A stretch of DNA of 64,000 nucleotides from Tubiluchus corallicola (Eukaryota > Priapulida > Priapulimorpha > Priapulimorphida > Tubiluchidae): positions 47,451-111,450 of the forward strand of contig JAQGDQ010000693.1 of assembly GCA_030141605.1 (NCBI GenBank), given 5' to 3'. The notes beneath the pieces were generated by a model. It did not search any database, had not been told where the DNA came from, and saw only the letters and a list, made by a program, of their open reading frames with translations. The first letter of the stretch is position 1, and every line of letters starts with the position of its first letter. The position numbers and the translations under genes were made by a program. Positions 1-51,505 of the stretch are shown piece by piece.

Positions 1-3000
1 ATCAGAAATTGAGTCGACTGAACTTCACATTGAGGTGCCTTCTGAAGTAATGTCAGTAGATTTTGAGCTTAGCAAAATTACAGAAATAGAAACTGCTGAA
101 ATCGATATTGCACCTGAACATGAAATGGGAACAGAAATTGATGCTGTTGACCTAGTCCACGAGATTGCTGACACAAAAAGTGACAAACTTCCAGACGTTG
201 CTGTTCTTGATGTTGAACTTGTGAAGCCATCAGAATATGAAGTTCCTAAGCTCACAGAAGCTGTTAGTATTGATGTTCAACTAGAAAAGCCATCAGAACA
301 AGACATGCTTCCTGCTGAGGTTAATATAGAAGCTCCACCTGGAATGACAGCAGAGGATGTTGAGCGTTCTACAGAAATTGTTGGTACTGATGTTCACCTT
401 GAAGAACCAGTAGAATCAGACATGCATCCAACTGAACTTCACATTGAGGTGCCTTCTGAAGTAACGTCAGTAGATATTGAGCCTAGCAAAATTGCAGAAA
501 TAGAAACTGCTGATATCAATATTGCACCTGAACATGAATTGGGAACAGAAATTGACATTGTTGATCTAGAGCAAGAGGTATCACCATATCCTTCTGCTGC
601 TGAGCTTGAAATTGAGAAGTTGCCTGATTTACAAACTGCTGACACTAAAAGTGACAAACTTCCAGAAGTTGCTGTTCTTGATGTTGAACTTATGAAGCCA
701 CCAGAATTAGAAGCTCCTAAGCTCACAGAAGCTGTTAGTATTGATGTTCAACTAGAAAAGCCATCAGAACAAGACATGTTTCCTGCTGAGGTTAATATAG
801 AGGCTCCACCTGGAATGACAGCAGAGGATGTTGAGCGTTCTACAGAAATTGTTGGTACTGATGTTCACCTTGAAGAACCAGTAGAATCAGAAATGCATCC
901 AACTGAACTTCACATTGAGGTGCCTTCTGAAGTAACGTCAGTAGATATTGAGCCTAGCAAAATTACAGAAATAGAAACTGCTGAAATCGATATTGCACCT
1001 GAACATGAATTGGGAACAGAAATTGACATTGTTGATCTAGAGCAAGAGGTATCACCATATCCTTCTGCTGCTGATCTTGAAATTGAGAAGCTGCCTGATT
1101 TACAAACTGCTGACACTAAAAGTGACAAACTTCCAGAAGTTGCTGTTCTTGATGTTGAACTTATGAAGCCACCAGAATTAGAAGCTCCTAAGCTCACAGA
1201 AGCTGTTAGTATTGATGTTCAACTAGAAAAGCCGTCAGAACAAGACATGTTTCCTGCTGAGGTTAATATAGAGGCTCCACCTGGAATGACAGCAGAGGAT
1301 GTTGAGCGTTCTACAGAAATTGTTTGTACTGATGTTCACCTTGAAGAACCAGTAGAATCAGAAATGGAGTCAACTGAACTTCACATTGAGGTGCCTTCTG
1401 AAGTAACGTCAGTAGATATTGAGCCTAGCAAAATTACAGAAATAGAAACTGCTGAAATCGATGTTGCACCTGAACATGAATTGGGAACAGAAATTGACAT
1501 TGTTGATCTAGAGCAAGAGGTATCACTATATCCTTCTGCTGCTGATCTTGAAATTGAGAAGCTGCCTGATTTACAAACTGCTGACACTAAAAGTGACAAA
1601 CTTCCAAAAGTTGGTGTTCTTGATGTTATGAAGCCGTCAGAATTACAAACTCCTAAACCATCTGAACAAGAAGTGGTTCTTGCTGAAGTTAATGTAGAGA
1701 CTTCTGAAATGACAAATGCAAAGGCTTCTTTAGAAATAACAAGTGATATGAAATATGCAACAGAAATTGTTGGTATTGATGTTCATGTTGAGGAGTCATC
1801 AGAACCAGATATACTTCCAACTGGACGTCATGATGACATGCTTGTTGAATTAACATCAGATGTTGTTGAACATGACACATCACCGGACTTGCAAGCAATG
1901 CTTGTACCAGCCGAGTCAGATAAACCCCAAGACATATTAACACAAATTTCTGATGCACAGTTAGGTATGAAAGAACCAAAAACTACAAACATAAAATCAC
2001 CATTACACATTTTAAGTACAAAAATAGGAGAACCTGCTGAGTCAGGCTTACCAATAGCACCTCCTGAGAAACAGGACGAACAGGAACAGGTATCATATTA
2101 TTTTGTTGTGGTATGTTTTGAAATGTGGAACTATTTAATTATGTTTATAATGAGTACACTTGCAGAATTTGCTATGATTTGTCATCATATAATTAGTTCG
2201 GTGGAAAGACTTGTATCATTCTTTTGAAAGCTTTAGTCTGTAAATAAGAAAATATTTTGTATATAGTCAATATAATCATGGCTTTATATGCAACATATCA
2301 ATTTTTCGTAACTTTAATTATTTTTGGTATCTTTTGGGGAATATTTCTTCCGAGGTAGCTGTTACATTTTGGTTTTCCATTTAACATATAGGTTGAAGAT
2401 GCTATTGAGACAGTCAGAGAGGAGCCATTTGTTGAGCCTGGAGCAGAACCAATGCCAAAAGATGTTGATACTAAAGAAGAGACAAATGAGATAACAAAAC
2501 CAGAAGATGTTGAGCTTGAAAAAGAGCCAAAAGAAGTTATAAGTGCCTTACCCATTGACACTTTTAGAGGGGAACAAGTCACACCTCACGAGGAGTTAGA
2601 ACCGGAAGATGTTGGGGCTGAACCAAACAGGGGGGAAGAAGAACCAAAAAAAGTAACAAGTGTTTTGCCCATCAAGTTGCATAGAGAGGAACCAGTCGGA
2701 CCGCATGTTGAATCAAAATCAGAAGCTATTGGTGTTGAAGAAGAGCCAAATGAAATAATAAGTGCTTTACCCATCCAATCATTTAGAGAGGAAGTAGTTA
2801 AATTTCATGTAGAGTCAAAATCTGAAGATGTTGAGACTGAAAAAGAGACAAAGGAAGTAACAATTATCTTGCCTATTGAATCATATAGAGAACCCGCTAA
2901 ATCTCAAGAACCTGAAGAACAATTCAGTGAGGCATTTAGAGATGAACAACCAGAAATAGAGGAAGTGGATCTTACAACTGTTGTTACAGAAGATTTACCC

Positions 3001-3141
3001 ACGAACATGTGGGGGTATGATCCAAGAGAGCTTAGTTATGCAGAAGTGTTAAAGCTGGGTTTGCAAAAATTGGAACCACATGAGGATGAGACGTTTGTCA
3101 CCACAGAAGAATTGCAACTTGAAGGTGGCCCAATTGAAGAG
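1..3141 (+). CDS. Nesprin exons 1-2: acidic tandem-repeat region
   Basis: Exons 1-2089 (continuing from upstream) and 2392-3141, joined in phase 0. Donor at 2090 and acceptor AG at 2390-2391; donor at 3142. The encoded stretch of about 946 residues is rich in Glu, Asp, Val, Ile and Pro and has no predicted membrane segment. Exon 1 is built of about 157-residue repeats whose inner pattern recurs as variants of I-D-V-x-L-E-x-P-S-E. Exon 2 carries four copies of a 34-39 residue unit with the core LPI followed by R-E. The region resembles the unstructured or repeat-expanded segments found in invertebrate nesprins rather than spectrin helices. The ORF would run on past 2089 to a stop at 2225-2227, but the codon pattern changes there and the downstream exon continues the same style. 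A retained-intron isoform ending at 2227 remains possible. Confidence 0.85.
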
Positions 3142-6100
3142 GTATATATTTGTTCAGAAACTTTGTTTGTTGTGTGTGTTATCTGTTTCTTTCTTCATCC
3201 TAAAGTTGAAAACATGTAAGAGTTTATTTACACGCAATCATGTTAGTGCAATGATAGATTCACAAAATTTTGTGGTCACTTAAGTTTTACAGGATCGAAA
3301 TTCACTAAAGTGACAATTATTATAACAAACTTTTACTGTTTACATCTTCAAAGAAAATATAAAAAATAAAAACATGTATGTTTTTAATGATGTGTTTTTA
3401 ATGAACGTTGCAGGTACGGCCTGTTTATCAGGTGCATCATGATGTATTGCTGCATCGAATAATTCATCGAGTTACAGTTACTGAGATCTGGTTAACAGAA
3501 GTCGTGGAAACCTTTATGACTCGTCCTATACAACCTGGCGAAGCCAGTTACACCTTACAAGAAAACCTTGTATGTTTTGACTTACGTCTATCATGATTGT
3601 AATGTTTAAGGTCTCTAAGATATCTACAACTACTGTTATTTAAAGTAATGTGACAATCTAGGTGAAATAGCAAAATAAAAGCAACTTTACATGACATTAA
3701 AAGATCAACGTATATTTGTGCAGTGAAAATTAAACTCAATAGGAAATAAACTGTTTTTGAATTGATACTAGGTTTGTAACTAAATTTTACTGATGCGGAA
3801 TGAGTATAGAAACTATTACGTATTTCACCTGATAATGCATGCTAGCAATTTCTTTCTTGATTTTCTAAAAGGCCTGTGTTTTTAGGTGTCATTAAAATTG
3901 TATTTGGTTGTGTTTTCTTTATAAATAAGGCATCAGGAGTAGAAAGTACATGACACCTTCCATTTATTGTGTCATTATTATTGAATTATTATTTTTAACA
4001 GGATTTACAAGAGGCTATTAAGGCAAAAGAAAAGGAGCTTAGTAATTTATCCGTACTTTACACTCAGTTGGCTACACATCATTCTCACGAACCAGCAGAA
4101 GATATGCTTCCTCGCTTTTCTGCATTACAGACACAACTTTCGCAAGCTAATATTATTCTGGATTCTGGTGTAGAAGAACTTGAAACCACTGCTGAGGAAG
4201 AAGCCAAAAAACTTGCTGTTCAGCAAGAGGTTTCTTACATCATTCCTGTTGGTACACAGTGGGAGGAAGCAGAGGTTGACGACTCTGCTAGAAGTCTTTA
4301 CGGACATGATTTGAGGACAATGACATATACCGAAATGTTAGAGCTTGCTATTGAAAGGCTGCATGTGAGTGAGGAAGAACCAGAAGTGATTTCATTGCCT
4401 CAGGCTCAACCCACAGTACTGCCATCTAAAGAAGTAAGGTTTTTTAATTAAATTATTTTGTCAGTTCAAAAGTAGGCTATTCTTTTTAATAAATGCAGTC
4501 CAAGGAGCAATTTGGTAAAGTTTATAGCAACGTCTTGGACCAATTATTCATTATTTATCATTAAATATCTCATTTATCAGGTATAATTTCATACTCTGGA
4601 TAAACAGATGTTCACCGTTTTGTAAACCTGCAGGTGCAGGATACATGCAGAAGTTATCATGAAAAGTTGGTGCAGCGAATCATTCACCGAGTAGCGGTCA
4701 CAGAAGTATGGGTTACGCATGTTGCTCAAACGATTATTAACCAACCTATTCACAACCAAGATGCAGTTGCACTTCTCCAAGAAAATCAGGTGAGAGTATG
4801 TTGAACTTTAAGTGGGCAAAAATATAAGTTAAAACAATGTGCACTGTTTTGTTTGTTCTTATAAAAATGTTGGGTAATAACACTGTGAGGTTTAGCAAGC
4901 TACTAAAATACACTAAGTGTTCCAGTCATTTTTTGAAGCTTTGACTTCATATTTTACATATAGTGACCAAGAGGAATATAACGTTATAATGTATTATTAT
5001 GACATAATGTAATATTAGAACATCTAGTCTGCAATATTTCATGTTACTTATTATTTTTATACTACAACTTGTGTGCAGTGTTTTATGAATACCTCTTTGG
5101 ATGTAAAAGATAAACCTTTACTTGGACTGGTGTCTATAACCTGTTAGATTCATTGAATATCGCAGTGTAAAATGCAGTAGCAAATATTTCAACATTTTAT
5201 TACTAGTGCAATTGCATTGTGCAGTTTAAATGTAATAACAAAGTTTTTTCAATGATAATATATAAGTAATCCACAAGGTAAAACAACATTATTCATATGC
5301 ATTGACTACTATATTAGGCAAACTGAACAGTTCAGCGGATCACTTTGTCGGCTTGGTAAATTTTCTGTTACCTTTCTTGAGGCTATTTACTGGTGTTGAC
5401 TTTGGACGATCTGACTTATTTAAAAAAGAAAAAATAGATTAGAAAAAGACTTTTTTGAAGGGAAATTATTTTGAAATATGTGGGGATCTTGCCATTTGTT
5501 TTTGATTTTTTAAATAAATGTAATCATAGAAACTTTAATGCTTGTGTCAAAACCTGTTAATAGTGAAATGCAGTGCAGTCTTTTTTCTCATATAAAAATG
5601 TTTAGTACCATCATAGCACATAAAGTCAAAGTAGTTGTTTTTGTATGAATAACTCTGTTAGTTATAGTTTCTCTGAGAAACTTTTAAATGTAATGAGCAC
5701 TTCTGTCAATTTATAATTTATTGTTTAGTTGACTAAACTACAATTTTTTTATTTTAAATTACAAGTTAAGATTTAATTTAAACTCACAGGAAACTCAGCA
5801 GATGCTTGTATTGAAACAAGGAGATATGAATGAGCTGTTTGTTCTTTATCATCAAATTAAACTTAATGAACCAGCCCATAGAGCCGTGACCCTTCAGGCT
5901 CGCATTGATGCTGTTTTGGTACAACTTCCCGAACTGGAAAGCAAACTTCAGTCCAAAGAAATGCAACTACAACTACAAATAGATGTAAGTATGGCCTTCT
6001 CTCTAAATAGGTTAATTCATTACACTGTCTTTCTGAAAGTAAGTAGATAGCAGTGATAAGTCTGTTGTGATGCTAGCAGTACTATAACAGGTATAGTTAG

Positions 6101-9100
6101 CAATGACATAATAATAGTTTAGGTGGGAAGGTATAGCGAAAATTTGTACTACACGACAGTTTTTGTCAGTAGGGCCTAAATACTTCAAAGTAATGCCTAG
6201 TTGTTATTGCAAGATAAGTTAAGTTGCTGCACTCCAAATGAATTACTTGGCATTACTCAAATTTTATTTTAGTAGGGAAAAAATTCATTTAGTCCGTGAC
6301 ATTTTTGGGCATTGCAAATTCTTGCTTGAAAATGTGGAAAGTCATTCGGCAAGTCTGACAAGTATCAGATGTGTATTTACCTATGTGTAATTTCTTGTGA
6401 TGAGATGCAATAACCAAATAACTATAACTAATGGTATATAATGGTATATAGCTCTAATGGTCTATTAATTAATATTTGATAGTTCTATAATTTTTTGGTG
6501 TCTTCATGCACTATTTCTTTGTTGTAGGAATGTAAAAAGCAAGAAGAGGAAGAAAAGAAGAAACCAGAAGAAACAAAGAGTGGATTAGGTGGATGGATGC
6601 AGTGGTTAACTCAGAAAGTTGTAAGCAAACCAAAACCTGAAGAGGAGGCTAAACAAATTGACGAAGCCAAGCCTGGGGATATAGGCACGGAAGCTTTGGA
6701 ATCTAAACCTACTGATTTCGAAGACGAAGACGAAGACGAAGACAAAAAACCTGAAGAAGCAACAGACAAAGAACAAGATGTTCAACATGCTGTGGTGCAA
6801 GAACCTGGCAGTTTTGATGATGAAGTTTGCAAGATTTATGAATCTGCAGCAATTATGGAACTAAGACAAGAAGTACCGGTAGAAAATCAAGAAGATTTTG
6901 AAAAATCGGAAGCAATCGATCTCACTCTGGCATCAAGTGATCAAAGTCAAAAGGAGCCAGAGTTTGCTGACAAGGAAATACCCGTTAAAACAGAACGTGT
7001 CGTACAAGGTGACCTAGATGCGACTAGTCAAGAGGAAACAGAGTTTGATTTGCAACTTTATAAACCACAAACTTTAACTGAAGAGCAACAACCAAGTGAT
7101 TTTGAAACCAAATTAAGTCTAAAATTAAAACAAGAAGCTCTGGTTGATGCCAAAGATGCACTTCTTGAACAACCTAAGGGAGTTGCAAAGACTAAAGAAT
7201 TAGATGATTTTGACGAAAAAATAGATGAAGAAGAAGCTGATGACAAACAAGCAAATTTACCCATTGAACGTGAAACAGATGTTTGTGAGTTTTCATCACC
7301 CGAGGAACAATTCGAAGGAACTCTGGAGGATCTTCAACAAGGTCCACAACCTTCAGTGGCTAGTCCAAAAAAATACATACAAACCATTGATGAAAGGGCA
7401 AAAACGTTTACCATTGAAGAGCTTCCTAGTGAAGAGGCAGCAGATGTCACTGATGGTACTGATGAAACTTTGGTATGTTTTTCTTTGATATATAAATTGA
7501 ACTTATTTCATGATGGTCTTTGGTTTGGTGTTGTAGATTCCTACAGTTTTCCCATTCCTTGTTTTCTTAGACACAACGTCATTATTTTTGAAACAATTCC
7601 TACTTTCTGTTGTAGTTAATTGATCCAAGTGCAGTAAGTCATTCTATACTGATGCAGTCAGTAGCTGACATTGCTTTGCTGACGGAAGAGCCCTTGTCAT
7701 CAACGGACTTGACCGTTGGACAAGTTGACTCTCAGTGGGAGGTTCTGCACTGGTATCTTACACAGCAGGAACTTCAGCTTACCGGAATGGCGTCTCCTCC
7801 TGAAGTATGTAGTTTGTTTTTCATTTCAAGTCATAGTACTGTAACATATATATATATACATATATATATATATATTCTAGCTTAAAATAGTGACAATTGT
7901 TTGCTACTTTTTTTGCAGTCTTTAGTTCTGTTTGCATGCCTTATTTGTAATAAACATTCGATTAATCTTGGAAATCAATCTTATTTAGTCAGATTAACCA
8001 ATAAAACAAAATATGCAGTGTTTGTTTTTCAACCAACTAATAAAGCAGGTGTACATCTGTTTGATAAAAATCCATTCAAAATAAAAATCCTTTGGTTTTA
8101 GGATTGCTGGCTTCTCTAAAGTCCATTCTTATTTTTGGTGAGAAATTGTAAACTAAATTCTTAATGTTTTGCTAAGTAGCTTATATTTTGTATGTCTGGC
8201 AATGCTTGGCAGGACTAGGAATGCTTTATTAATTCACCTTTCACTGATTTTGTATGTGTACTGCAAAGGTGGCTTGATTTCTACATGTATTGTAATGCCA
8301 GAATTTAGTAACTTGCCGACATAATCTCTGAGGCTTATTTATTTTTTGCTCGTTTATTAAAGTTATTGCTGTATTTTTGTCTGGTTAAAACTAGATTGGT
8401 GTTATTGTTGTATTTGTTAGACTGCCTGCTTTATATGCTTGCTTTAATTGAACTATCATGCCAGGAAGTGAAAGTTGTTCATGGACACTTTTACATTAAT
8501 ATTGTTTACATCTAAAGCTGAAATAAAAAATTTTAGCAAATGTAGAATTATATTTTGAAATTCCATATATTTCACTGCTGTTGCTTTTCACATACTTTTT
8601 AGGGATTTTGTTGTTTTTCATATTTATATGTAGTGTATAACTCTTACCTTTCATTTTTTTAATATACAATTTCTGTGTGCCAGCACGATTTTTAATTATG
8701 ATTTGTCAGCAGGATATGGAAGAGAGGCAGCGTTTTTTTCGTACCTACCACATTTTAACAACTGAAACCACTATCACTGAATGGATTACTGTACAGACTT
8801 TGATCACACGCTTATATCAGTACTATACAGCAATTCAGGATACTTTGCCCAATGATTCTCAAGCTCAGCTGCTACTGCTACAGATGTTAAAACAAACCAT
8901 AGAGCAATTGTGCATGTACATTACAGCCATGCAAGTTAGACTTATGAAACCTTCAGGAGAGGATCTGGAAGTGCAGGTCATACAGAATGAGGTAAGATTT
9001 TTGAAAGTGTTAAAATTTCTATATACTTTGTTTAGCACTTACAGCCTTTTAGGGCGAGAGAAATACATCAGTATTGAATCAAAAGTGTTTTTCTTGAGAT

Positions 9101-12100
9101 TATGCAATTGTTACCTTTTTAACCAAGGCACCAAGCGTACATATACCTCTAGATTTTATTTGAAGAAGATTATTTTTGTGGCCCATAACTATTTTATTCG
9201 ATCATTTTTAGCGTGACCACATCAGGAATTTGGAAAATTTCCATATGTTGAGCCTGGAAGATGATGTAGCACATAATGTTGTGATAATTGCTCCATGTTA
9301 AATTTTTACATGTGCTTTTGATAGACTATGTAATTGTATGTGTGTGCATGTAATGCAAAATGTTTCTTGCCTGATAAAAAATAGTTGTCCACTATTCATA
9401 TGCACCTTTGATTTATTCAAGTAATATTTCAATATGTTCTTTATGGCAAGTATCTTCGAAAAAATCTTTATCTTGCATCTTTTTAGGAACTGATCGATGA
9501 CATCAGAAGAGCTGCAGAAGAAGTATCTATCTTGCAAGAAGTGGCTCCTCTCTATATTGTTCATGCTTCACCACGTACACATGTTTTAGTAAAGCAGTCA
9601 TTGACTTTGATGCAGAACAGACTATCAACTCTTGAAGACAAAGCAGTGGAAAAAGGACGACTTTTGCAAGAGAAGAAAAACCAGGAGGCTGTCATACAAG
9701 TAAGAAATCATGAGTTACAATAAGTCAATAAAAATTATGCTCTGTTTTATTAAAAATGTTTGGTCACTTGTTGTCTTTCTTATTTACTGAATATGTTGAA
9801 CATGACGTAAGAAAACAATTATAAGAAATATTGTTGATATAAAATTAACAGAAATTGAGTAAATTTTGATATATGAAGACTTGTGTTAGTTGTTCAAACA
9901 TAGCTGGTATGGTGATTTCAAAATGCAACTTCTTTCACTTTGGTTTTTGCTTATCAATAACTCCACTTATTTAGTATGAAATACATTCAGGAAGAAACAA
10001 ATTCAGAAAAAGTGCCAAATCAGTAGGATTATTTTAGTTATGCTCTTTTTGTTAAGAATTGTATTTTTGTGGCTAGATGGAAGTGCACAGGTTGTTAACA
10101 TTAGTGACAACGGTATGGGAGCAGTACACAATAATCGTCAACAACGAAACATTGTCAGCAGCAGAACAGCAATTACCTCTTCAGGTAAGTCAATTCTTTT
10201 TTATATTGAAACTTTAGAAATAATTTAAAAAATTCTTCCAATGAACGCCATTGTATATGACAATGATTGTGATGGCAAAAGGAGCTCTAAAATTTTCTGA
10301 AAATTTTGTTCTTATGAGAAATGTGAGCTACTGCAACAATGAATAATAGAAAAAAAGCAGTAAAGTTTCACCAGAAATGCTAGGTAAACTCATTATTGAT
10401 GGAGTCATTTTGAAATGACATTCAAAAAGATAGATCTTGAAAAGTTATGGAATACTGTTATTAGGCAGTCTACTAACATTGCACGTATTACAAAAATACA
10501 GTCATCAGTTTTACTTAGCATTTGCCATTTCGCTACTTTAATGTAATGCTAGTAATGTGTGGCAATACAATTAGTCCTTATAAATGTGTTAAAAGAAAAC
10601 CAGATGATTTTTTAGACTAATTCTTATTTTAATTTACTGTCCAAACTATACATTTTCTTACCTATAAAAATTAGCAATTGATTCTTATATTTGAATAATT
10701 TGTTTAGGAAGTTAATTAATGGCAACCGAACACACCTATTGCTTACGTCAGAAACTAACCACAGTTTGTGCAATGGGAGGCATCTTCCTTTGCGCGTCAA
10801 GCACGTTTGCACATGTGTTACTGCTTAAACGTGTGAAGTCACAAAAATAGGCTCTTATATCATATGATGCCAGAAACTAACACTGCAGTTCATGATCGTG
10901 GTTATCACGGTACCACCTTCTATTTGTCGGCCACACACATGTGACAAAAAGTCGGCGTTGCCAATCTTTGTAGATTCACTGAGCTTTGAAAGTTTAACAA
11001 AATTTGGGTATCCGAGGTAATTATTATTTATTCTAAGCTTTGACTTAAAAAAAGCTATTGTAGTTTTCGACATTTTAGAGCACACTTTATTCTGAACTCG
11101 TGTTTACACAATCATCCGGTTTTCCTTTAACATTAAAATCTTATTCAGTCTGCAAGTTAAGTCTGGAACATTTTGCTTTTTGTAATGAAAGATTTTTGAT
11201 TGCTATATGTATGTGATACCTTCTAGCAACTTGGTTTTTGATATTATAAAAACAATAAAATGCTTGTTTTAAATGTGAATTAGCAGATGACAACATTTTA
11301 ACAACTGAACATCTTACTGTACAGCATTTACTTACATGATGTCCCACACTACTAGCACTGTTGCTCAAGCTTTCTGTATGAGCTTATGGCAGTGGGTTTA
11401 ATGCTCTTACAATTGTAATATTTAATTTCTATTCAAAAAACCATTTTGCCATTGATAAAAGATTTATTTGTCAGTTACTATTAATACATATTTGCCTATT
11501 ATAAATGTAGTAATAAAAGTTCTGGCACACATTAGGCATCTACGTTGATAGTCAGTGTATAAGACGTGAGCTGTTTTAGCATGGTTTTTGTTGGAGAAAA
11601 GCACATCCTATATAGCAAAAATATGGTAGGTAGAAGTATATCACTTGTGAATCCTTCTAGAAACAGACTAAAACATTGTAACAGATGCAAACCACAGTTA
11701 CTTAGACTGGACTTTGTTTTCACAGGAAGCTGAGGGCAAGCTTGCCGAATGCGAGGATGGAGTAAATCAGCTTCTGATTGTTAACACAGATCACCTAGCA
11801 ACTGACACAGCATCCAGCATTTATCAACTCAGTACCAATTTCCATAATTTGCGGTCACTGCTGTCCACTCGTGTCGTGACCTTGCACAAGACTGTGGCCA
11901 TCCAGAACCTGTATGAGAAATTACTACAGGAGTATGTGATGTTATTAGAAGCCGGAGAGAGGAAACTGCAGCATGTAACAGCCGCAGATCTTGATGATTT
12001 GAAATCACAAATCATTGCAAATAAGGTAAAAGTTTTTATAACTAAATTGGTGACCACGGGGATTGTATTGTGTAGTTTGTAATACATGTTGTGATGGGCC

Positions 12101-15100
12101 TGCCCATGTGCTGCATTTGTGAGGTTTTAAGCCAGTGTTTCATGTCTCTGCAACTTTTTGGAACGATCGAAGATTTTCTGTCCAACAGTCGCTAAAAAAT
12201 TCCCCCAACCATGTTTTCTCATCTAAGTTGCAAATTATTCGTGTAAAGTTTTAAATATTTCGCACAATTTTCCCCACTTTTTGGCAAATTTCAAGGTTTT
12301 TTCTAGGGCAAAAATCGTGAAAAGGTCACATGAAATTCATATGCCAAGTTTGCATGTGACGCTTATTCGACAAGGCGAATGTTGCACGACATTTGCGCGA
12401 GCACATTGCAATCATTTCCTTAATATGTCACAGGATTTGCATGGAAAAAATGCTAGACGAGCAAGCTTCTCCAAAATGTTGAAAAATAGCCCAAAGTTGT
12501 CGCAGCAAGCATCTCAAAATGTTCTCTAAGTTTTCATGAATTTTGAAATCGTTGACGATCATCACAAATAATTGGGCACATATTTGTGCAGGTGTAGCAC
12601 ATGTTCATGATAGTTTGGAGAAAATGATGAACAACCACAAATGATTTGAGACTATTCAGGGAACTTTTGGATCATGTCTTGTGACTGTCTGCCATTTTCA
12701 GATAGTCGCCAAATTCATGAATCCTGTGAAACACCGCTTTCGTTTTTTTTAGTGCCAGTGCACAACACTTGTGACAATCAAGCGGTACAAGTTTGATTTT
12801 AAATATCCAAATATGTTGCAAGTATGAATATTAAAATTCTGAAAATTAAATTAACTACTTTAAAATTAAATACAGTTTTACCTTTAAATGCTTGAAATGA
12901 AAATGCTGTTACAGTTACAGTTAACCATCTTTCAATTTTAATAAATCTGTAGTTAATTTTGTATTGTTTTCATAAATGCTTGTTCCCTATTTTATTTGTG
13001 AAGATATATTAATAATTTTCCATTGTGTTGCAGAAATTCTTTCGATACCTGTGCATATTCCATGCCATATTGAACGCTGTACGTGATAAAGCCGATCCTG
13101 TTACCAGAGAACACCTCGTTCAGAAACATCAACACGTGACTAAGCGCACTTTTGCTGCCCATGCTCAGGCAGTAGACCATGTGGTTAATTTAGAGTGCAT
13201 TGCTCGTCAGTGGTCAGAGTTTGAGCAGCAGAGACTGAAGATGAATGACACAGTAGCTGACGTATATCAGCAATATAAAGCTGCCAAATCCTGCACTTCT
13301 GATCAGGAGTTACTTGCTGCATTGAAGGTTAGAAATCTTTAATTGTATTAACTGAGACAACAAATTTTACTAATTAACTGTAAATAGATGGGCCCAGCTG
13401 AATTTGCCAAAATTAAAGGTAGCCAAATTAGGCCACAGAACATTCACTAGCTTCTGGAAATTACCTTTGTAGTATGTTTCTTTGTGGCATGGTTTCATAT
13501 AATACGTGAAGCAAAATTGCTGCTTAATGATACTTTAGTTTAAAATGCAGTGGTATTTCTTTACTGCCTGTCATGTGCTGCATAAAACACAAGTTCATTT
13601 TTTGAGAGCTTGTCAGTGGCATTGCTAGGGAGGCGGACCGCCCTGGGTGGCAGTCCTCAGAGGGCAGCACTTTGTAAAGTTCACTGAAAAAATTGATTTT
13701 GTTGGAGCAGTAAAATGGCAAAACACTTGACACGATTTAATTTTCCACTAATTAAAAATGCCGGTTACAGTGCTTTCTGCCGAAAATTTGTCGCAAAGGA
13801 AGAACATAGTTAGTAATGTATTATTTTTATAATGTTCACACTATATTTCTGTGCAGTACACGTCCTTGAATTAACTGTGAGTTGCATTCATAATCATGCT
13901 TTTTCCTGCATTAATGTTATTTTGAAGAAGCCCCTGAGTGGGCCTATCGTAGTTTTTGATACCCGCAGTGAGAATTTGTTTCTTTACAAGTTATTTTTTA
14001 CTGTAGTACATTATTATTTTGTCCATTTATCTCCACAACTTATAATAACTGCAATGCAACACTGCTAAATGTTTCAAATCTACACATTTTAAATCAGAAC
14101 AATATTGCTATGTTGTACTTCTGCAAACTGAAGTACCGTCCTGCACGCCACAAGCTCTAGCTATGCTGCTGGTGCGTAATTTTAGAGTAAAAAAAGATTG
14201 CTGATTTTTTCTTGTTATCTAAGGGTTGTCTGTTCCAGGTTTATCTGTTTATCATTTTTAGAAAAAAAATTGAGACCATTTCACATGGTAACTTTTCTAA
14301 AACTTTGAATCACATTCTAAAGTACTAATTAAGTATAAACTTTGTATACCTGTATTAAATTCTAATTAAACGTAAACCGGAAATAAGCACAGGAAGTTGA
14401 GTTCTTTATCAAATTATACGGACTTATCTCTTCCAAAAGTGAGTGTCATATAAACTACCAAATTCACAGGTTATGTTAGTATTTTTAATAATAGGTGCTT
14501 TTTGTCCATTTAAGTTACCTAAGACATGTATACAAGTTACTTAGGACTTAAGTTATGTAACACATGGAGTTTACTAATTTCCCTCTAAATATGTGACATT
14601 TTTGAAATTTTACTTTGGCGCATGTCTTAAAATAGCAGCTTTTTCAGATGCTGAAATGGCAGATAGATCAACACAACAACGAAGTTCTGTCATCTATTGA
14701 CACAGGAAATGAGCTCACAGGAAAGGTCAATTGTCCACTTTTACAGTCTCATGTGTCATCGCTGAGTAATCGGTGGAATCAGATCAGATCTGGTGTTAAA
14801 CAGGTAAACAGCTAATTCTTTTGGAAACATTTATCAAAATCTTTGTAGCCAGTTTTAAGAAAACACGCACTTCTGTTGTTTCTGTTTGCTTTTATAGGAC
14901 TTAGACAAACTGGAAAACATGCTAAGCTTGCAGGCTTCATTCCAGCAAGAATTAAGCACTTTCAGTTGGTGGCTTCACAACAAACAGCATGAGCTTTCAG
15001 AGATCTCAGACATGCGGCCGGCTGATGTGGCACACGACAATGTCGTGGCAGCACTTGCTCAATTACTGGTAAGTTAACAAAGATTAGCAAAAAGTGGGGA

Positions 15101-18100
15101 TTCTATTGACTTCATTCAAGCACACTGTTCAGCTGGCTTAAAGAGGATTTCTTACTGTTTTTTAGTCTTGAGTGCTTTGTTTGTTTGTTTTTTATTATGA
15201 CGATCTTATTTTTTATTTTGGTGTAGAATTTGAAAACTTATCCAGTTGCTGTTTGTTAAGCCCAGCCCAATTGAAAACTTGTTGTGCTGTACGGCCTAAA
15301 CAGCAAAGCTCATTAAGCTGGCGTAAATTGACTACCTTGCTTGATTTAAGAAAACTACTTGTATACTACATATGTGTGAAAAGAAAGTTTTGCAAAAACA
15401 TGCATCCATGATACTTCCTTGTAAGTTGATTTTGTATTCATTTTTTAATTTGTTTTTATGTTCTACAATATTTTTTAGGGGTTGCGGCGTAGTATTGATG
15501 TGCAAGAGGAACGAAAAGAGAAGTTGAATTTACTGGGAAATCAGTTGATTAGTGCGCATCCACATAATGCTGCTGATGTGAGCACGCAAATTACATCTGT
15601 AAACAGACAATGGGATGATCTCATTAGAGGTAATTTATTTTTTTTTGGGGTGGGATTTATTTTATAATTCCATCTAGTAATTTAATCCTTATAATAACTG
15701 TGAGAATGTAGCATTCTATTTTAGCTCTCATTTACATGAAGTCGCTTACAATTTTGTTATATAATTTCCCTCTAATTGACCTTTTCGTTTAAGGAATACC
15801 GTTGACAGAGAAACCATTTGTCAGCTATGAAGTTGATACCTCCACGCCGCAGGTCACCATGCATCAACTTGCTGACTGGCTGCGTGACGTGTCTAGAACA
15901 CTGTCTGAAGATCGCATCACGTCACTGGCATCTTATGAGCATCTGCAAACAACCTTGAACAAGTATCAAGTATGTCTTACAGCTGTGTCAATTTATGAAC
16001 TCAAATGCTTTGTTGGTTTCTTTGCAGGTGCTGATTTGCTGCACTTACAGTTTGAATTTTGTTCAGTAATCACAACTTCTGGAAGTGTTAATCAAACTTT
16101 CCAGAAGTTCTTAAGCAACCAGCAGTTTAATCTTTGCTACAGTTTTATAGGAAATGCGTTTTGTCACAAAACAAGGCTGTGAGAAAGGAAAACTAACAAA
16201 AATGAATGATCTTGTTATTATTGATAATAAATGCTTAACATCAGCTGTGTTAAAGAGGCCAATTAAAGCATCATTGCATTCACAGTGCTGTAGATTGCTG
16301 AAATTTGTAACTCATTTTGTAAGAAAAAAATTATTTCTATTATTATCTATGCAAAAGAAAACATGATATAAATACAGTAGATGTCGCTTAGTAGACTCAC
16401 TTTGAGAGGGCAGTCTTTTGACCAAATTAACCCGTTCACCGAGGGGTGTTGTGTTACTAGATGTATGTGTCATCGCTCTTCAAATTAGTATCCACTGCAA
16501 AGGCTGAAAAGAGTTTTAAATGTTACGTCGTTATGCTCATCAAAATTAACTCTTTACTCTTGCTCTATGATGTTTATATTTGTAAGTCACAAAGAATATT
16601 GGCAGATTACTGCAGCTGTATCGCTAACATAACACCGACAGTTTAGTGATTGAACATTCTGTGAAAAGTAACAAGTGCTTCGAAAACAAAACCACTTGGC
16701 ATGTGATTAAAAGCTTAGCTTCCATAAATAGGTGACAAGGTTAATTGCAGCGGATGAGTGAGTGACTGATTCAAAGCAAAACTGCTACACTAGCATATTA
16801 GTACATGACAAACATACTTGCTTACAAACAAAATGGTACTTAACATCACTGCTTGAACTTATATTACAGTGCACATAAACGAAGCGAAGATGACATAAAA
16901 ATTGTAATGCTCTTTGATCACACACAAGTGTCTTATTTTAACGGCAGGAACAAAAATATTGAGTCATTTATGCAAATTGCCGACAGTTTTTATGTACATT
17001 TGAGTAGGAACAGCCCTTACCAGACGTTTTTGAGTCAATTAGGCCACTGATTCTATTATAGCGTGAGCCAACTATCGTTCGTACTATTGTTTGATAAGTT
17101 TGTGTAATCAAATGTCTATTCTACTTAGGGAATAAAAGTTGAAATAGCCAGCAAGCAAACTGTTATAAACCAAATCAATATGTCAGTGTCTAAACTGGAT
17201 GTGATTGATCAAGAACAAACGGAATTGTCGGAAACTCTTGGCAACGTTAACCAACTATGGCTGGTGAGGATGAGATATAAATTGTTCACTGATATTTTTT
17301 CTGCAGACTCTAAGAATGATTCAGTACATTTGTAGAGCATAATATTGCTGTATAGCAGTAAAAATACCACTATCTTCTCAAAGAAAGTTCATGTTTTTAT
17401 GATAAAAAGTTAATCTACAAGAGACACATATAGAGCTTTTAAGTTCCACAGTCAGAATGATCATTTACGCTACTATCAATGTACCAACAAAGCTCTGAAT
17501 TTTAAAACCTTAATGGGTGTAGGAACTTTATTGATTTATGCTGTGTTAATGTGTCTAATGCTTTTTCCGTCGATTATGTTGTGTTAACGATGCCTGCTTT
17601 ATTGAACCGCCATTAACTTACCTGAAATCCATATTACAACAGGACATAATGCTTGTGTAGTGCCTGCTTGTATGAAAGATGGAGAATTCATATTTTTCTC
17701 TTTCAAATGCAACAAGTTCGTAATAAAGCATAGCAATAATTATTTTTGCGGAATTTTTCAGGTCGTTTCTAGTGAAGTGGCTCACGTGTTGAAAAATCTT
17801 GAGCAGGCATATGTCAGCTGGACTGAGTTGAATGATGCTTGGAACGAGATACAGACATGGATACAGCATACCAGTGCCAGTCTAGAGGCATGTCAGAAGG
17901 CAACAGATCGTATTGCTATCAATGCTTCACTGCGAGAAATTAAGGTAGGATTGTAATCATACCCTTTTGGATATAAATCACTTATATCTGACAATACATT
18001 AATACTTGAATGGCAGATATTGTTTTAATGCTTAATAAAATTTGAATGAGTATTGTTTTCTAAATTAGGAGTTTGCTATAATAGCTAGAATGATTACTCA

Positions 18101-21100
18101 CTGTTAAAAACACAGAAAAAACAAAAAAATGCCGAAAAAGTAGAAAAAAAATGAGCCATCTATTGCTTACGTAGAAATAATTATCGCTGCAATTTAATGC
18201 TTTGAAAATGCCAGAATAATTGAAGGAAAAAATAGAAACTTTTGGATGATGAAAGAAATTGTTACTATAATGCATCATAATTATGCAACTATATAGTAGC
18301 ATTGAGCTGTGAGTGAATCTTAGAAGGCAAAAATGTAAATGCGAGAATTTCAATGTGATAAATTTGTAAAGTTTCCTAAATATATTGAATGGAGAGAGAA
18401 GCTGTAAACTGTATCAATAGCTCTATCTGGTATGTCTTTACTTTTACCATCGATAGTAACTGCCACGAGAAACAGGTTCTCACGAGAAACACCGTCTTAT
18501 TTCCAGGTTCACAAGCAAGAGCTGCAAACTCGACTATCAAAGTTGACAAGCATGCAGGCTAGTTCTCAGCTGTTGTGTCAGACAGTGCCCGAGTGCACAG
18601 ACTCGATACAAGTTACGTTAGCATCTCTACATCAAGCATTAAATGCAATGGGAACCAACTTAAACGATACTGAGAGTGAGTTACGAGAACGAAATTGCCA
18701 GCTGAAGGAATTTGACCAGGTGTGTAATGATTGTGTGTTTACTAATTTTTAATATGACGAATATTGATTGTCTAAGCGTGCTTGCTAGGAAATTTATATT
18801 TGCTATGATACCAAAAAAGAAACCTGCAGTAAGGTAAGACATTATGATATACAAAAGATACATATTGTGATAGGTCTTGAATCGACATGTCTTGACTATT
18901 AATTGTGAAAAGCAGAAAGCAAAAATGTGAGTATTAAAAAGCAAAAAGATATATTGTTCTGTGTTTTTCCAATTAGTGTGTGGAAGATTTGGAGAAAATC
19001 CTAGGTTCTGCTGCCGTATTGGTTGCGCAGTCCGAAACCATTTCCGGTGATCTTGAAACATTACAGCAGCAAATTGAAGAACTACAGACTCTGCATAGTC
19101 AACTTAACCTATCACAGCCAGCAGATAACTTACTGGACAAGGCTAAGGAGATTCAGACATGGATCCCACATCATGAGAGCTATCCAAGACAAAAGTTGAA
19201 TAGTACATGTCATAGTGTTCAAAACAGGTACAATCATTTTATATTTCATTAGATAGTTTAGTTAACATATTAACACATCTTTAAAATTTAAAGATTTGGT
19301 AAAAATACCAAGAAGAAATTCTTAGAAATGCAATCTTTCTGAACTGCAAATTGTTCTTCATGTTACTTTTCTGAAATTGTCATTTACTTTGCACTTGATT
19401 TTTAATGTTGCAAAATTAACGTATAGGTCCTCGAGTCATTGAGTTTTGTTAAGTTTTCTTTAATGAAGCAGAACAAATAAATGAACATCTGAACACTAAA
19501 ACAATGCAATCAGCAATATAACAGCAGAACAGCATTTGAATCCATGCCTTCTGTGAGCCTCTTCCACCAGCTATATAATCTGTGAGACCATAACCTATTT
19601 TGTGGTGAGTTGCCTGGCTTTCAAAATGATGTAAAATTATTCAGCGCATCAATTATCAATCACATGTGCATATTATGCAGAAACAAAACAGTTAGTGCTT
19701 ATTTTCAGATGGAGAGACAGTGAGAACCAAGTAGGAGCAAAACTACAAGAGCTACGAGCTTTGTTGGCTAGATGGCAGCAGCTGGACAAAGAAATAAGCG
19801 AACTGCAAACATCCTTGAGCAGTCATGAGAATGCTTACCATAAGGTTTTATCATCAAAACCATCCAATATAATACATCAGCAACAATGTTGTCAGCTACT
19901 TCAGGTAAAGTTAATAAATCTTAGACTTTGTGAAAGAAATAGTTGAATAATCACTACTCTGTCGATTCAGTATCTCAATTTAGAAGATTATTCTTGAAAA
20001 TGACTACTATGTGCCACAGTTAGCAAAATACTAGGTAAGCTCTGCTCCTGCACGCTGGATTCAGGCTTGTAGTTAGCTGAACTGTATAAAGAAGACTACA
20101 TATTTTTAACTTTTCCATTAAACTTTGTAAGTAATCTGTTCTAAACCATGATTTAATTCATTTGCGTTCATTGTTTGTATTCATTTTCTTTTTTTGTGTT
20201 TTTGTATGATAGAAATAGTATTTAGCAAAGCTTTTTGTTGGAATTTTTAGAAATTACAAAGTGACACCGAAAATGATGTCACGTTAGTACAAGAGAAAGC
20301 TGTAGAATTTGACAGTGTCTGTCTCTCACTGGACAATAGTTGTGCTGCTTTAGTTCGTTCACAGCAGACATCCTTAGAACACAATATTTCTGCCTTAAGC
20401 AAGAACTTAAACTCAAAGAAAGAGGCGCTCACACTGCAGGCAGAAAATGCTGGGATGAAAGAAATACCATGTATCAATTCTGTGAAAGCATTAATTAATC
20501 GGGCAGAGACTGTGCTGACATCTACCGGCGACATTGAGACTAAGACACCTGAGCAGATTAATGAACAACTTTCACAAGTACAGGTATGTTTATATTTGTA
20601 AATCACCTCATTTGCAATTTTTAAAATTTGTAACTTATGGCGACAGTTAAGCAAAGAAAGCATTAAATGAAGTTTCAATTAAGGTTCAACAGCCATAACT
20701 GTAATATTTAATGTGTGTTTTTAGGATCTTTTAGAAGAATTTGCTGAGATATCGCCAGAATGCCACCGTTTGCTATTTCGTGTTGGCGACATAACATTAG
20801 ATCCAACTGTCTCTGCTCAGCTTAGAGAGGTCATGGTGCAATGGCCGACCATTTACCAGAAACTGAAGGAACGCTATGTAAAGTTACTTGACGAGATGAT
20901 GTTGTCAGTGAGCTTTAATGAGAAATGCAAACAGTGGAACACATTTGTGGATAGGTGTGATGCTTGTCTTGATGAAATTATTGCAGAAAACAAAGCCGAC
21001 ATTGAGAAGCAGCAGCGAGAATTACAGGTACTATGCTTATCTTGTTTGTATGCTCTTATTCGTAGTAACATTGATGATTTTCTTTTTATGCAATATTTGT

Positions 21101-24100
21101 TTATCTTCTCATTTGTTTATTCAGTCGTTCATTCTTTCTTCGACTTGTTCATCCGTTTATGTACCCGTTTTATCGGTTTCTCAGTTGGTTAATTGCTTGA
21201 CTGATTGGTTGGTCGGTTAGTTGATCAGTGTTGTTAACCGATTGATTATTTATTTTCAGACATTAACTGCAATGCTACCAGGACAGCAGCATCTACTGGA
21301 AGCTATTCTTAACGACGGTCATGCAATACTGAATCACGGGACAGTCAGTAATCAACCAGCCTTCAAAAAACTTTTGAACGCTATACAAGAACGGGGCAAG
21401 AATGTAATTCAAAGGCTAAGGGAAAGACATGTAGAAGTGGACAAACGGTGTCTCCTATGGGATGTTCACCAAGAACAATATCAGAGGTCATTTTTGTCAG
21501 ATTCATCAAATGCACATGTGCTTTAATGGGTGACATTAGCTGGTAGAAGGATGCAAACTTCTAAAACAGTTTTCTAGTATTTAGCAATTGATGTCAAACA
21601 TATTGGTCTATTGCTCCGCCCCCACTGTTACGTGAGCACGCTCAGCAGCATTTGAGACAACAGCTCACGCAGGACAACAACTGTCTAAACTAAACGGAAG
21701 TAAACAACATGACAGTCACAACTAATGTCTAATCAGCAGACAAACTGATTGCGCTTTTTCATAAACACAGATTTGCAGAGCAGCAGCTATTTTTACATGA
21801 AATTTACACTTCAAGTAGCCAAAAAATGACTTTTCAATTTAAACAGAATATAGAGACGAAGTTTCGAAGCACTGCAAAATACAGAGACAAGCATAATAAA
21901 GAAACGAAGCCAGTTAGCTTTGCTTTACAACAAATTAACAACAAAAATATTGTCTCTCTTGCCTTTAAACATACGAACATCAAGCCTGCGATGTACTTTT
22001 CTATATATCAACTGATCACGTCTGCAAGATTTATTCAGTTTTTGTAATTTTCCGTTTGTCAGGCGACGGAAATGGAATAAATTTGACCGTTCCATTCCAT
22101 AGACGACCCTTATATTAAATGCCCGAGTCACATGAGCCCCAATGGCATCTTTTAACTATGATTATAACCAGGAAAATAGCGCAGAATTAGCTAATATTAC
22201 ACTGATGTATAATGTAAGTTTTGACCACATTTGAATTAATTTTGACTGTGAAGATGAGGTTTATAAAAGCTGGCCAAAAAACAAAACATTTTGTTTTGTC
22301 CTTATTTAAAGTTAATTAAAAAGTTGTTTTTATCTAACTTGCAAAGCCATAAACTAAACTAAACAGCATATTTTCTTGATTGCAAAATGGTTTAATTAGC
22401 AACTCATAGACGTAAGCGTTCTGCATTTCTTCCTATAAACGAAACTAGACTATGTATTTCCACTAATTCATTTGCAATTTCAATTGACAATAATAAAATC
22501 TAGAATCAGGCCAATATTTCTCACGCTAACTAATGAAAAGTTGAACATTTTTCATAACAGTATTAGCCGAAGCTGTAGCTAAATGTCCCAAATGTACCTG
22601 CGTTAATTAAGCTCTGCAGGGGTGCAAAATAACTTGCATGCTGATTGGGCAGTCAACGAAAATGATTGACATTATGTTAGACGTCAATTATCCTGTCTGA
22701 TTACTTAAGTGTCGTAATGTTTTTCTCTCTTTTATATTCAAAAATTTCGTCAGCTCTTAATGTAAAAATTAGAACAAGGTAGAGAAAACAGATAGCATTC
22801 ATTTTTAGTGCAATTTATTTTTATAATTTTAGGTTTACACGGTGGCTGAGCATTGCTGAAGAGAGAACTCCTAGCCCTGAAATACCTGGTTTATCTGTAG
22901 ATAAAGTACAGCAACTGTCAGCCGAAGTCGAGGTATTTTATATTATTATTATATTTTAAAATTAGTTGATAATAGTTTTTTTGTTAGTCGTCCTTATTTC
23001 ATTTGTAAATGGGGTATTCAAAAGAATCATTTGCATAATGTATGTCGGAATACTGCAATAATGTTACAGTGCTGATTTGATTTTAGTTAGTATGAAATGT
23101 ATTTTTCATTTTTACTGCAAATTTTTTTAAACTACAGATTTAAGAAAACCAAAATATGACACTATTTGTCTGTTTAGTTGCAGCAGCAAGCTTATGGTCT
23201 GAGAAGCAAAGATCTTTCTAGTTTACATGATTCTTGCCATGAATTGCAACCATTCCTCAGTGCCGAAGTTCGAAATACCTATACCCAGAATCTTGATGAC
23301 TTAGACTGTCGTTGGAACAATCTTGCTACGAAAGTTCAGGATCTGAAATACGAATTCCAGGTGATTAACAAATTTGGCTTCCTTTCATTAATAGATATGT
23401 TTGTGCTTTAGCGACCAAAATAGATAAAGTATCTGTTGATGGTAATATCGTGATAAATCTACTAAGGTATTAATTATTTCCTTCATAGTGACCTGATTAG
23501 GTAAGAAATCTGGCATGAAAGTGACCGAATATTTGCTAAGTGACCACAGTTAAGCAATGCTAAACTTAGTCAGCAAGCAGATGGTATCTGCGTAGACAAC
23601 TACTTCTAGACTGCTTCAGCTGCTAGTTTCCACTAGTACTGCTCCCAATTATTTACCTCTTTTTGAGACATACAAATTTGTCTATTGCTAGGTCCACTTC
23701 TGGCAGTTTAGTGTCATACTTTGAAAGTTGCTCATGGTAATGAAATACCCACCACTCTGCCAGTTAGTATTTGATTCCAGCTTGTAAAGAGTGTCAAAGT
23801 GAATGTATAAAAAGTGCAGTCAACTATGTCTCTAATGCACTTAGTTCAATAACACTTGTTGGCATTATACCGTCACTATACTTCAGAGTATGCTGAATCC
23901 TTGGAATGAGTGTGATGATGCCATTAGTGATGCCATCGCTTTGCTAGCCAGTACAAAAGCCATTACTGAGAGAGATATTCCTTCCAATTCAGCCGAACTC
24001 GTTAACGAACTGCAGATTTGCAAGGTATTGTCAACTTTTTTATTTGACGTTAACACGAATAGATATTCTTGCATCTACTGGTTATGAGTGGTCTGCTTTG

Positions 24101-40681: not shown

Positions 40682-42009
40682 TGTCGAACTATCAGGAGTC
40701 AATGTCTAGTGCTAAGCTTATCTAATCAGCCCAGTCAAACTCTAAATAAAAACAGAATAATTTTAATACTGCACCATTCCCAATATTTCGATAGAATCAG
40801 TAGTTTGTGTTCTAGATATTCCATAATGCTAAAGACAATGTTGAACAAAAAGTAAACTTCAAAGTAACTGCCCTTTGATGTCTTGACACACCAAAGCTCC
40901 AGTCATTAGTGATTCCCACAGATTGTAGAAGTATTCAGGTACCGAAAACTCTATTTACCTTATAAGTACCTGGCACCGAGCCTTCGATGTTTGTCCGGTG
41001 TAGAATCACAGATAATTTGTTAATTAGTAAAAGTTTCACTGGGCCTCCCAGAAGAAAACGCACACAGGGCGAGAGTTTTTTCGGCACTGTAATTCTACTC
41101 AATGTTTTCAGGACACCATAAATAAAATGCAACGCAAATTTTGTGTGCAAGTAGCCTGTTTCTTGAACATGATGCTCTTACATTTGTCAACCACCATTTA
41201 CAACTTTACAAATGAAATAAAAAGTAATGCCAGATGATGCATATTACAGTACAATTATCCTTAGGGTGACCATCCCTCCTGATTTTTCCAGACGCATCAA
41301 GGAATTAGGCTTGATGTCAGGGTCCCAAAAGTGTTCGGAAATTGTCAGGAAAAGTCAGTTTTCTCCCAGGAAGATCTCATATTTTCCAAATTTACATGTA
41401 GCCAATTCAAACGTAAGTTTGTGAAGCTAAATCCAAATAAATTTTGCCCAAATAATTTTCTAACATTGTGACAATTGTTAAGTATGATTATTTAACAAGT
41501 TTGTTTATAAATTTCATTACTTGTTTAGCTTGGCTTCTTTGGCAAAATACAGCACTCTTTCGTTGATTTAAAAGGCATATCACGTTTTGCAAAGTTTTTA
41601 CTCGCCTAATGATGTGTTCATGATTCAGAATGACTTTGATTACACTGCAATAAAATGCACAGCTACATTTTAAAAACCAAAAAAAAATCATTTATAGCTG
41701 CCAGAAATATCGCAAAATATAGTTTCAAAGCATAAATTTTTTTGTTTACTTGTGGCAATTAAACTGTTAACTTAATGCATTTCATCATTGATTTGCAATG
41801 CAGTTAGCAAATATTTGACGTAACCTAAGCATAAGAACAGAAAATACAAATAACCACAAAATTTTTTGTATCATTTTCAGGCGAGGCCTTAAAATATCAA
41901 TTTTTTATAAACATTTATTTGAAATAATTGTCTGGCAAACAGCAAATAAATGCTGACCAGGTTGTAAGACTTACACTAGTGGCAGAAAAACAAGTCTATC
42001 ACTATTTGC
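40682..42009. other. Upstream region of the SCCPDH-like gene
   Basis: I see no coding sequence. The stretch at 41262-41350 contains AGGGTGACCATCCCTCCTGA followed by GATTTTTCCAG, a form common at the ends of decayed DNA transposons. The gene's 5' UTR and promoter should lie just above 40681; no clear TATA box was seen. Confidence 0.4.
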
Positions 42010-45891: not shown

Positions 45892-45933
45892 TTTCTCAAT
45901 GGTGGACGGGGTTGAAACTTAGTTCTGTGGTTA

Positions 45934-50757: not shown

Positions 50758-50783
50758 AGGTTTCAGTTAGATGATATGGAGGT

Positions 50784-51467: not shown

Positions 51468-51505
51468 TTTCTCTTTAGTTGACTGCAGTTTCAAATAATA
51501 ACGTC
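51468..51505 (+). promoter_or_regulatory. Candidate internal (trans-)splice acceptor between COA7 and THUMPD1
   Basis: The 38-bp gap starts with TTTCTCTTTAG, a strong pyrimidine tract plus AG at 51477-51478, 27 bases before the THUMPD1 ATG. A second AG lies at 51487-51488. There is no AATAAA in the gap. The layout fits trans-splicing in an operon, or alternative cis-splicing from a shared 5' exon. Confidence 0.5.

What the first reader, a model, noticed from the sequence alone, without database searches (positions are those of the whole stretch)
35..1625. Near-identical 471-bp coding repeats inside a nesprin
Two steps of exactly 471 bp (449 to 920, 920 to 1391) and a 414-bp first unit with a clean 19-codon deletion make a young, frame-keeping array in a structural gene. 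Identity at silent sites implies recent unequal exchange or gene conversion. ANC-1 of nematodes also has large near-identical internal repeats, so a parallel expansion in another lineage would bear on how nesprin length evolves. The repeat is acidic and non-helical, unlike spectrin repeats.
Basis: partly seen in the sequence, partly recalled or inferred. Interest (0 to 1): 0.7.

Follow-up and report, generated by a model that had tools for sequence, protein, structure and literature searches.

The report
Nineteen-unit disordered repeat array in nesprin
An unnamed animal's nesprin gene, which makes the giant protein that tethers the nucleus to the cytoskeleton, carries in one huge exon about nineteen nearly identical copies of a 157-residue acidic, probably floppy segment, so the tether can apparently lengthen or shorten by whole units through copying errors.

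Summary
The exact 471/471/414-bp steps are there; they are the 3' end of a 19-unit array (C2029:40723-49309): 17 core units (13 of 157 aa, one of 156, three of 138) and two diverged edge units, in one 9,432-bp phase 0-0 exon. The gene is a nesprin: tandem CH domains, spectrin-like rod, C-terminal KASH ending RYTNGPPPF. My RNA-less gene model predicts about 16,700 residues, with a central ~7,100-residue, largely acidic block. The unit and one upstream exon share a 13-residue period absent from the three spectrin-like regions tested, which show heptads. Core units differ by 4.6% on average, with no correlation to distance, signs of recombination, and silent and replacement differences equally frequent (ratio 0.97): frame and length, not exact sequence, appear to be kept. 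AlphaFold gives pLDDT 33 and almost no helix. C. elegans ANC-1 is a published parallel (six 903-residue repeats), but predicted helical. Best reading: a concertedly evolving, length-variable disordered spacer in a giant nuclear tether. Function, expression, read-level copy number and species are untested.

The parts
1..163 (+). 3' part of core unit U14 (138-aa form, 57-bp deletion); the unit starts upstream of the window at C2029:47200
164..634 (+). core unit U15, 471 bp / 157 aa
635..1105 (+). core unit U16, 471 bp / 157 aa; nearest to U17 (98.5%)
1106..1576 (+). core unit U17, 471 bp / 157 aa
1577..1859 (+). diverged 3' edge unit U18 (73-77% nt identity to the core units where alignable)
1..2089 (+). 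3' part of the 9,432-bp array exon (C2029:40108-49539, phase 0-0, 3,144 aa); donor CAG|GTATCA
2392..3141 (+). next acidic insert exon, with its own degenerate repeats (autocorrelation lags 34, 73 and 107 aa)
4002..4433 (+). insert exon, phase 0-0
6528..7472 (+). acidic insert exon, phase 0-0
8710..36242 (+). 3' spectrin-like rod: predicted exons with heptad periodicity and no 13-residue period
35051..35380 (+). spectrin-repeat exon (PF00435 6.7e-7, 30.2 bits against a cut-off of 29.9; PF25034 Spectrin_SYNE1 1.6e-5, below that model's cut-off); AlphaFold control, helical
37594..37836 (+). terminal ORF with KASH domain (37663-37836), C-terminus ...[11 protein letters not shown]

Best explanation
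This is a giant nesprin (CH-CH, spectrin-like rod, KASH) whose rod is interrupted by a block of about 7,100 residues that is largely acidic and probably poorly structured. Part of that block is built on a 13-residue motif alternating hydrophobic and acidic residues, with frequent P-S-E steps. One run of about twelve motifs (157 aa, 471 bp) was amplified head to tail inside a single phase 0-0 exon and is kept alike by unequal crossing-over and/or gene conversion between units, so core units stay about 95% identical while the two edge units diverge. Most likely role: a flexible, negatively charged spacer between two spectrin rods that sets the reach and compliance of the nucleus-cytoskeleton tether. 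Each exchange changes protein length by 157 (or 138) residues without breaking the frame. Shown: anatomy, array size in the assembly, homogenisation, absence of detectable replacement-site constraint between units. Inferred: disorder (composition and low pLDDT), spacer function, protein expression, joining of the two contigs into one transcript.
For: Nesprin identity: PF10541 E=4.9e-25; nearest solved chain nesprin-1 KASH 1.6e-9; two CH stretches E=2.1e-46 on C144, which overlaps the start of C2029 with 0.78, 1.56 and 4.4% substitutions in three aligned segments of 898, 1,663 and 3,136 bases. Array: 19 units, found at one locus only. Homogenisation: 136 core pairs, mean difference 4.6%; no correlation of identity with distance (r=-0.03, Mantel P=0.40); four-gamete conflict in 200 of 496 pairs of informative sites, PHI-type test P=0.01, 0.006 and 0.034 for three window sizes; three units share one deletion junction, yet two of the three have their closest relative outside that trio (U09-U11, U14-U10). 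Edge units diverged from the core (82-88% and 73-77%). Constraint: dN/dS 0.97; variable sites by codon position 30, 27 and 31 of 157 each; frame open over 3,189 codons. 13-residue period: z=5.7 in the unit, 5.6 and 6.0 in the two halves of the 5,304-bp exon, maximum z reached by 0 of 2,000 shuffles in each; z13 of -1.3, -3.3 and -1.0 in three spectrin-like regions, which peak at 7. Composition of the core array: 27% D+E, 5% K+R, 9% P, no W. AlphaFold mean pLDDT 33, against 63 and four helices for a spectrin exon of the same gene folded alone.
Against: No RNA or protein evidence; exons come from my own simple predictor, and 37 of 230 predicted exons were dropped as weak. The last ~3.2 kb of C144 found no match in the first 30 kb of C2029, so the overlap that joins the CH end to the array is not clean. 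The alignment given to AlphaFold was shallow (10 near-identical rows), so low pLDDT alone is weak, and the model did place many short strands. The unit is not low in hydrophobics (26% V+I+L), and the charge-hydropathy measure puts it on the disordered side only modestly (-0.08), with one spectrin-like region also slightly on that side (-0.012), so a beta assembly or binding by partners is possible. The stop-codon test is marginal (P=0.045). Adjacent units are slightly more alike than in random order (P=0.046), so recent local duplication also contributes. The 13-residue period is missing from other insert exons tested.
Confidence: 0.7

Rival explanations
1. Selectively neutral accident: the exon sits in a tolerant, possibly alternatively used region, and unequal crossing-over inflates it with no functional consequence.
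For: Among core units silent and replacement changes are equally frequent (dN/dS 0.97; 77 replacement and 23 silent of 101 distinct changes, against 71 and 26 expected without constraint). The exon is phase 0-0 and so skippable without frame loss.
Against: The frame is open through 3,189 codons, length differences among the 17 core units are multiples of 3, and the 13-residue pattern is also found in a 5,304-bp exon in which the three detectable relatives of the unit have diverged to 36-39% identity, which suggests long-term constraint on pattern.
Confidence: 0.25
2. Docking platform: each unit is a binding site (for instance for motors, microtubules or membranes), and copy number sets multivalent binding.
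For: The regular 13-residue motif and fixed unit length would suit a multivalent linear-motif array (inference).
Against: Replacement changes are as frequent as silent ones between units, so no constraint on unit sequence is detectable overall; a short protected motif was not tested for separately.
Confidence: 0.2
3. Assembly artefact: copy number inflated or collapsed.
For: The same contig does hold a suspicious exact 733-bp duplication at its very start (166-898 = 899-1631, 100%), both copies of which align to one stretch of C144. No reads were available.
Against: No two of the 17 core units are identical; the closest pair differs at 7 sites. The contig runs through the array on both sides with no N.
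Confidence: 0.07

Closest known systems
C. elegans ANC-1 (nesprin-1/2 ortholog)
   Same: CH-CH to KASH giant with a tandem array of nearly identical large coding repeats (six of 903 residues, almost 100% at nucleotide level; PMC8139857 passages).
   Different: [quoted passage not shown] here units are 157 aa, acidic and with almost no predicted helix, 19 in number, and set between spectrin-like rods. ANC-1 is up to 8,545 residues (same passages); this model is about 16,700.
Vertebrate nesprin-1 and nesprin-2 giant
   Same: CH-CH, spectrin rod, KASH; the closest solved KASH chains are nesprin-1 and nesprin-2.
   Different: Their rods are described as almost entirely unbroken spectrin-repeat-like structures, 74 and 56 (PMC3646009 passages); here about 7,100 residues of largely acidic sequence interrupt the rod.
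Giant ankyrin-G / ankyrin-B exons
   Same: A single giant in-frame exon (7.8 kb in ankyrin-G) adds a very long segment to a cytoskeletal linker (PMC5422562 passages).
   Different: Different protein family; no young tandem array is described in the passages I read.
Drosophila MSP-300
   Same: Nesprin with isoform-specific use of exons; exon 28 is confined to some isoforms and suggested to be needed for nuclear anchorage (PMC8616381 passages).
   Different: I saw no statement of tandem near-identical repeats in the passages shown; its sequence was not compared here.

Membership tests
Nesprin (giant KASH protein, nesprin-1/2 type) | C-terminal transmembrane KASH domain | tested here: met
   PF10541 E=4.9e-25, full model 1-58, ends PPPF at the stop; nesprin-1 KASH in PDB 1.6e-9
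Nesprin (giant KASH protein, nesprin-1/2 type) | N-terminal tandem CH actin-binding domains in the same gene | tested here: met
   Two CH stretches E=2.1e-46 in stitched exons of C144, which overlaps C2029. The link rests on a contig overlap, not on a transcript, and the last ~3.2 kb of C144 do not align
Nesprin (giant KASH protein, nesprin-1/2 type) | Rod of spectrin repeats | tested here: met
   PF00435 4.1e-10 in stitched exons and 6.7e-7 in a window exon; heptad periodicity z=6.9-9.9 in three regions. Against: the genome-wide PF00435 scan (150 of 244 candidates scored) listed no C144 or C2029 hit among its 108 exon-by-exon matches, so single-exon matches are weak
Spectrin repeat (for the 471-bp unit) | Three-helix bundle / Pfam Spectrin match | tested here: not met
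   No Pfam match over its cut-off for units U15-U17; 13-residue period rather than a heptad peak; AlphaFold places two 7-residue helices in 314 residues, all under pLDDT 50
ANC-1-type repeats | Large near-identical helical repeats of about 903 residues | tested here: not met
   Unit 157 aa, almost no helix in the model; the ANC-1 sequence itself was not compared
Concertedly evolving coding tandem array | Homogeneous core, diverged edges, exchange between units | tested here: met
   comparison between species, the standard proof, not testable here

The most novel reading that the evidence does not exclude
A nuclear tether whose length is evolvable in quantised steps: a 13-residue disordered motif compounded into a 157-residue unit and then into a roughly 19-copy higher-order array, in what may be one of the longest KASH proteins (about 16,700 residues predicted), likely variable in copy number between individuals, so that nuclear-anchor reach differs heritably by about 157 residues per unit.
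Probability: 0.35. Interest if true: 0.8.

Novelty: new variant of a known kind. Interest (0 to 1): 0.6.

Why it matters
How giant linker proteins gain length is usually inferred from old, diverged repeats (general knowledge). Here the process appears caught recent: unit differences (4.6% on average) are not far from the differences between two contigs that I take for alleles (0.8-4.4% in the one overlap available). With ANC-1, it gives two nesprins that grew by near-identical in-frame arrays of quite different material, which suggests that length or compliance of the nuclear tether, rather than a particular fold, is what evolution adjusts. Natural copy-number alleles, if they exist, would make that directly testable.

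Tried and rejected
First exon predictor fragmented the gene into hundreds of tiny exons and was discarded; the second enforces exon and intron lengths. Of 230 predicted exons, 37 with score under 5 (791 aa) were left out of the 16,704-residue total; a cut of 15 leaves 15,928.

Pfam matches to the array (VanY, RHD_dimer, coronavirus NSP3 and others) are below their curated cut-offs and were taken as compositional. No PDB sequence match at E up to 0.1 for the window part of the array exon.

A COX1 search to place the organism through its mitochondrial code found nothing; the species stays unknown. A second copy of the array or of the next exons was sought and not found.

One 'stop' is an artefact of scoring two changes in one codon separately: position 25 in U15 reads Y, not stop, and the frame is open throughout.

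The 13-residue period was not found in exons 25043-26809 and 35509 or in the first 205 residues of the array exon; for exons 49842 and 53978, tested only, lag 13 was not among the eight top lags. It is therefore not a property of the whole acidic insert; the smaller insert exons were not tested.

Literature: ten searches in an open-access library showed me no report of such an array in a nesprin other than ANC-1. For most papers I saw only titles and starts of abstracts, and several lists were cut (for example 12 of 671, 12 of 94, 12 of 58). Subscription papers are mostly not held, so this is not proof of absence. An AHNAK-like comparison was considered from memory only; the search for it gave nothing useful and it is not claimed.

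Full report
WHAT IS THERE. One 163-nt block recurs at window 1, 415, 886 and 1357, and Tandem Repeats Finder reports period 471, 97% matches and no indels over 166-1627. The window is C2029:47451-111450 of a 343.5-Mb genome in 2,344 contigs, so it starts inside the array. Searching the genome with one unit gave 19 matches, all in C2029 between 40766 and 49309. A protein search gave 23 matches, all in C2029: 19 in the array, three diverged relatives (36-39% identity) in the exon at 28132-33435, and one weak stretch (E=0.006) just upstream of the array. I divide the array into 19 units, U00 to U18: a diverged first edge unit, 17 core units (13 of 157 aa, one of 156, three of 138) and a diverged last edge unit. 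The array lies in one open frame of 3,189 codons, spliced in my model as a 9,432-bp exon with phase 0 at both ends.

THE GENE. The terminal ORF at window 37594-37836 is a KASH domain (4.9e-25) ending [11 protein letters not shown]; the solved chains matched are nesprin-1, -2 and -3 KASH peptides. The contig begins inside the gene. Its first 5.8 kb align with contig C144 in three segments: by substitutions 0.78% different over 898 bases, 1.56% over 1,663 and 4.4% over 3,136 with 132 gapped columns. The first two segments hit overlapping stretches of C144, because C2029 starts with an exact 733-bp duplication that C144 lacks; and the last ~3.2 kb of C144 found no match in the first 30 kb of C2029. 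I read the two contigs as alleles; this is not proven. C144 carries the 5' part of the gene, including tandem CH domains (2.1e-46). A simple exon-chaining model across both contigs gives 230 exons; 193 pass score 5 and code for 16,704 residues. About 7,330 residues lie 5' of the insert, 7,080 in the insert (15 exons between C2029:25043 and 55254, limits set by me, 13 of them phase 0-0) and 2,290 3' of it, not counting the KASH exon. Of the insert, the exons whose composition I measured are acidic (22.6-28.9% D+E against 14.8-18.3% in the spectrin-like regions), and the insert pieces given to Pfam matched no family over its cut-off; not every insert exon was given. These totals are predictions without RNA support. 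Against the spectrin label: the genome-wide exon-by-exon Pfam scan, which scored 150 of 244 candidates, listed no exon of this gene among its 108 hits; the label rests on stitched exons (4.1e-10), one window exon (6.7e-7) and heptad periodicity.

HOW THE ARRAY EVOLVES. Over all 136 pairs of core units the mean difference is 4.6% (7 to 38 sites). Identity does not fall with distance (r=-0.03, Mantel P=0.40), although neighbours are slightly more alike than in random order (P=0.046). Of 496 pairs of informative sites, 200 fail the four-gamete test, and nearby sites conflict less than distant ones (PHI-type P=0.01, 0.006 and 0.034 for windows of 50, 100 and 150 bases), as expected if segments are exchanged between units. 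The same 57-bp deletion junction occurs in U06, U09 and U14; U09's closest relative is U11 and U14's is U10, both full-length, while U06's is U09. The first edge unit has the long form, so the short form is probably derived. Silent and replacement differences are equal (pS 0.046, pN 0.045, ratio 0.97), and variable sites fall evenly on codon positions (30, 27, 31 of 157 each). Given the spectrum of the 101 distinct changes, 4.2 stops were expected; the script scored 1 (P=0.045), which is an artefact of two changes in one codon, and no unit has a stop. The data therefore show a kept frame and no detectable constraint on exact residues between units.

WHAT THE UNIT IS MADE OF. Autocorrelation shows a 13-residue period in the unit (z=5.7, with 26 and 39 also high) and in both halves of the 1,768-residue exon upstream (5.6 and 6.0), the maximum being reached by none of 2,000 shuffles. 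Three spectrin-like regions of the same gene peak at 7 instead and are negative at 13. Other insert exons tested do not show it. So a short motif was apparently compounded into a roughly 12-motif unit and that unit into an array. The core array is 27% D+E, 5% K+R, 9% P, with no tryptophan; its charge-hydropathy value is on the disordered side (-0.08), but so, slightly, is one spectrin-like region (-0.012). AlphaFold on two units gave mean pLDDT 33, all residues under 50, many short strands and two 7-residue helices. A spectrin exon of the same gene, folded as a single sequence, gave 63 and four helices. This fits disorder but does not prove it.

INTERPRETATION. The best-supported view is a disordered, acidic spacer in a giant nuclear tether, expanding and contracting by whole in-frame units. 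A purely neutral expansion is the main rival and is not excluded; a multivalent docking array is possible; an assembly artefact is unlikely because no two core units are identical, though copy number is not read-verified. The published parallel is ANC-1 (PMC8139857, passages read), whose repeats are longer, fewer, more alike and predicted helical. Vertebrate nesprin rods are described as almost unbroken spectrin repeats (PMC3646009, passages). In ten searches of an open-access library, seen as partly cut listings, I found no report of such an array in another nesprin. The species could not be identified.

Noticed in passing
G000:C2029:166-898 and 899-1631 (contig start, outside the window): Exact 733-bp tandem duplication holding one predicted exon; both copies align to one stretch of overlapping contig C144, so it is probably a contig-end assembly artefact.
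   Followed up: partly
G000:C2029:6694-18982 (outside the window): A set of eight predicted spectrin-region exons of matching lengths (136, 119, 208, 150, 174, 193...) occurs three times in a row, with 77-93% DNA identity in the five stretches that blastn aligned: an older segmental duplication in the same gene.
   Followed up: partly
window 2495-2841: A second, degenerate in-frame repeat (three copies of 128 nt, start-to-start 117 and 102 bp) in the next acidic exon.
   Followed up: partly
window 44056-45918, minus strand: Three adjacent ORFs that look like a broken retroelement: the last has a PHD finger just under its cut-off (8.7e-5), the first no Pfam match, the middle one was not scanned; by eye an endonuclease-like part and an ELNPGP stretch recalled as 2A-like.
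   Followed up: partly
window 62411-62697: Perfect 144-bp tandem duplication (2.0 copies, 100%) in sequence whose coding status was not examined.
   Followed up: no
window 39413-40705 (-), 50775-51467 (+), 51479-52441 (+): Neighbouring ORFs: saccharopine dehydrogenase NADP-binding, Sel1-repeat and THUMP-domain matches.
   Followed up: partly
G000:C1209:2121433-2121582, C147:1193598-1193735, C960:8150-8257 (all minus): Three further KASH-domain matches over the Pfam cut-off elsewhere in the genome, the last with a stop inside; possibly other KASH proteins.
   Followed up: no
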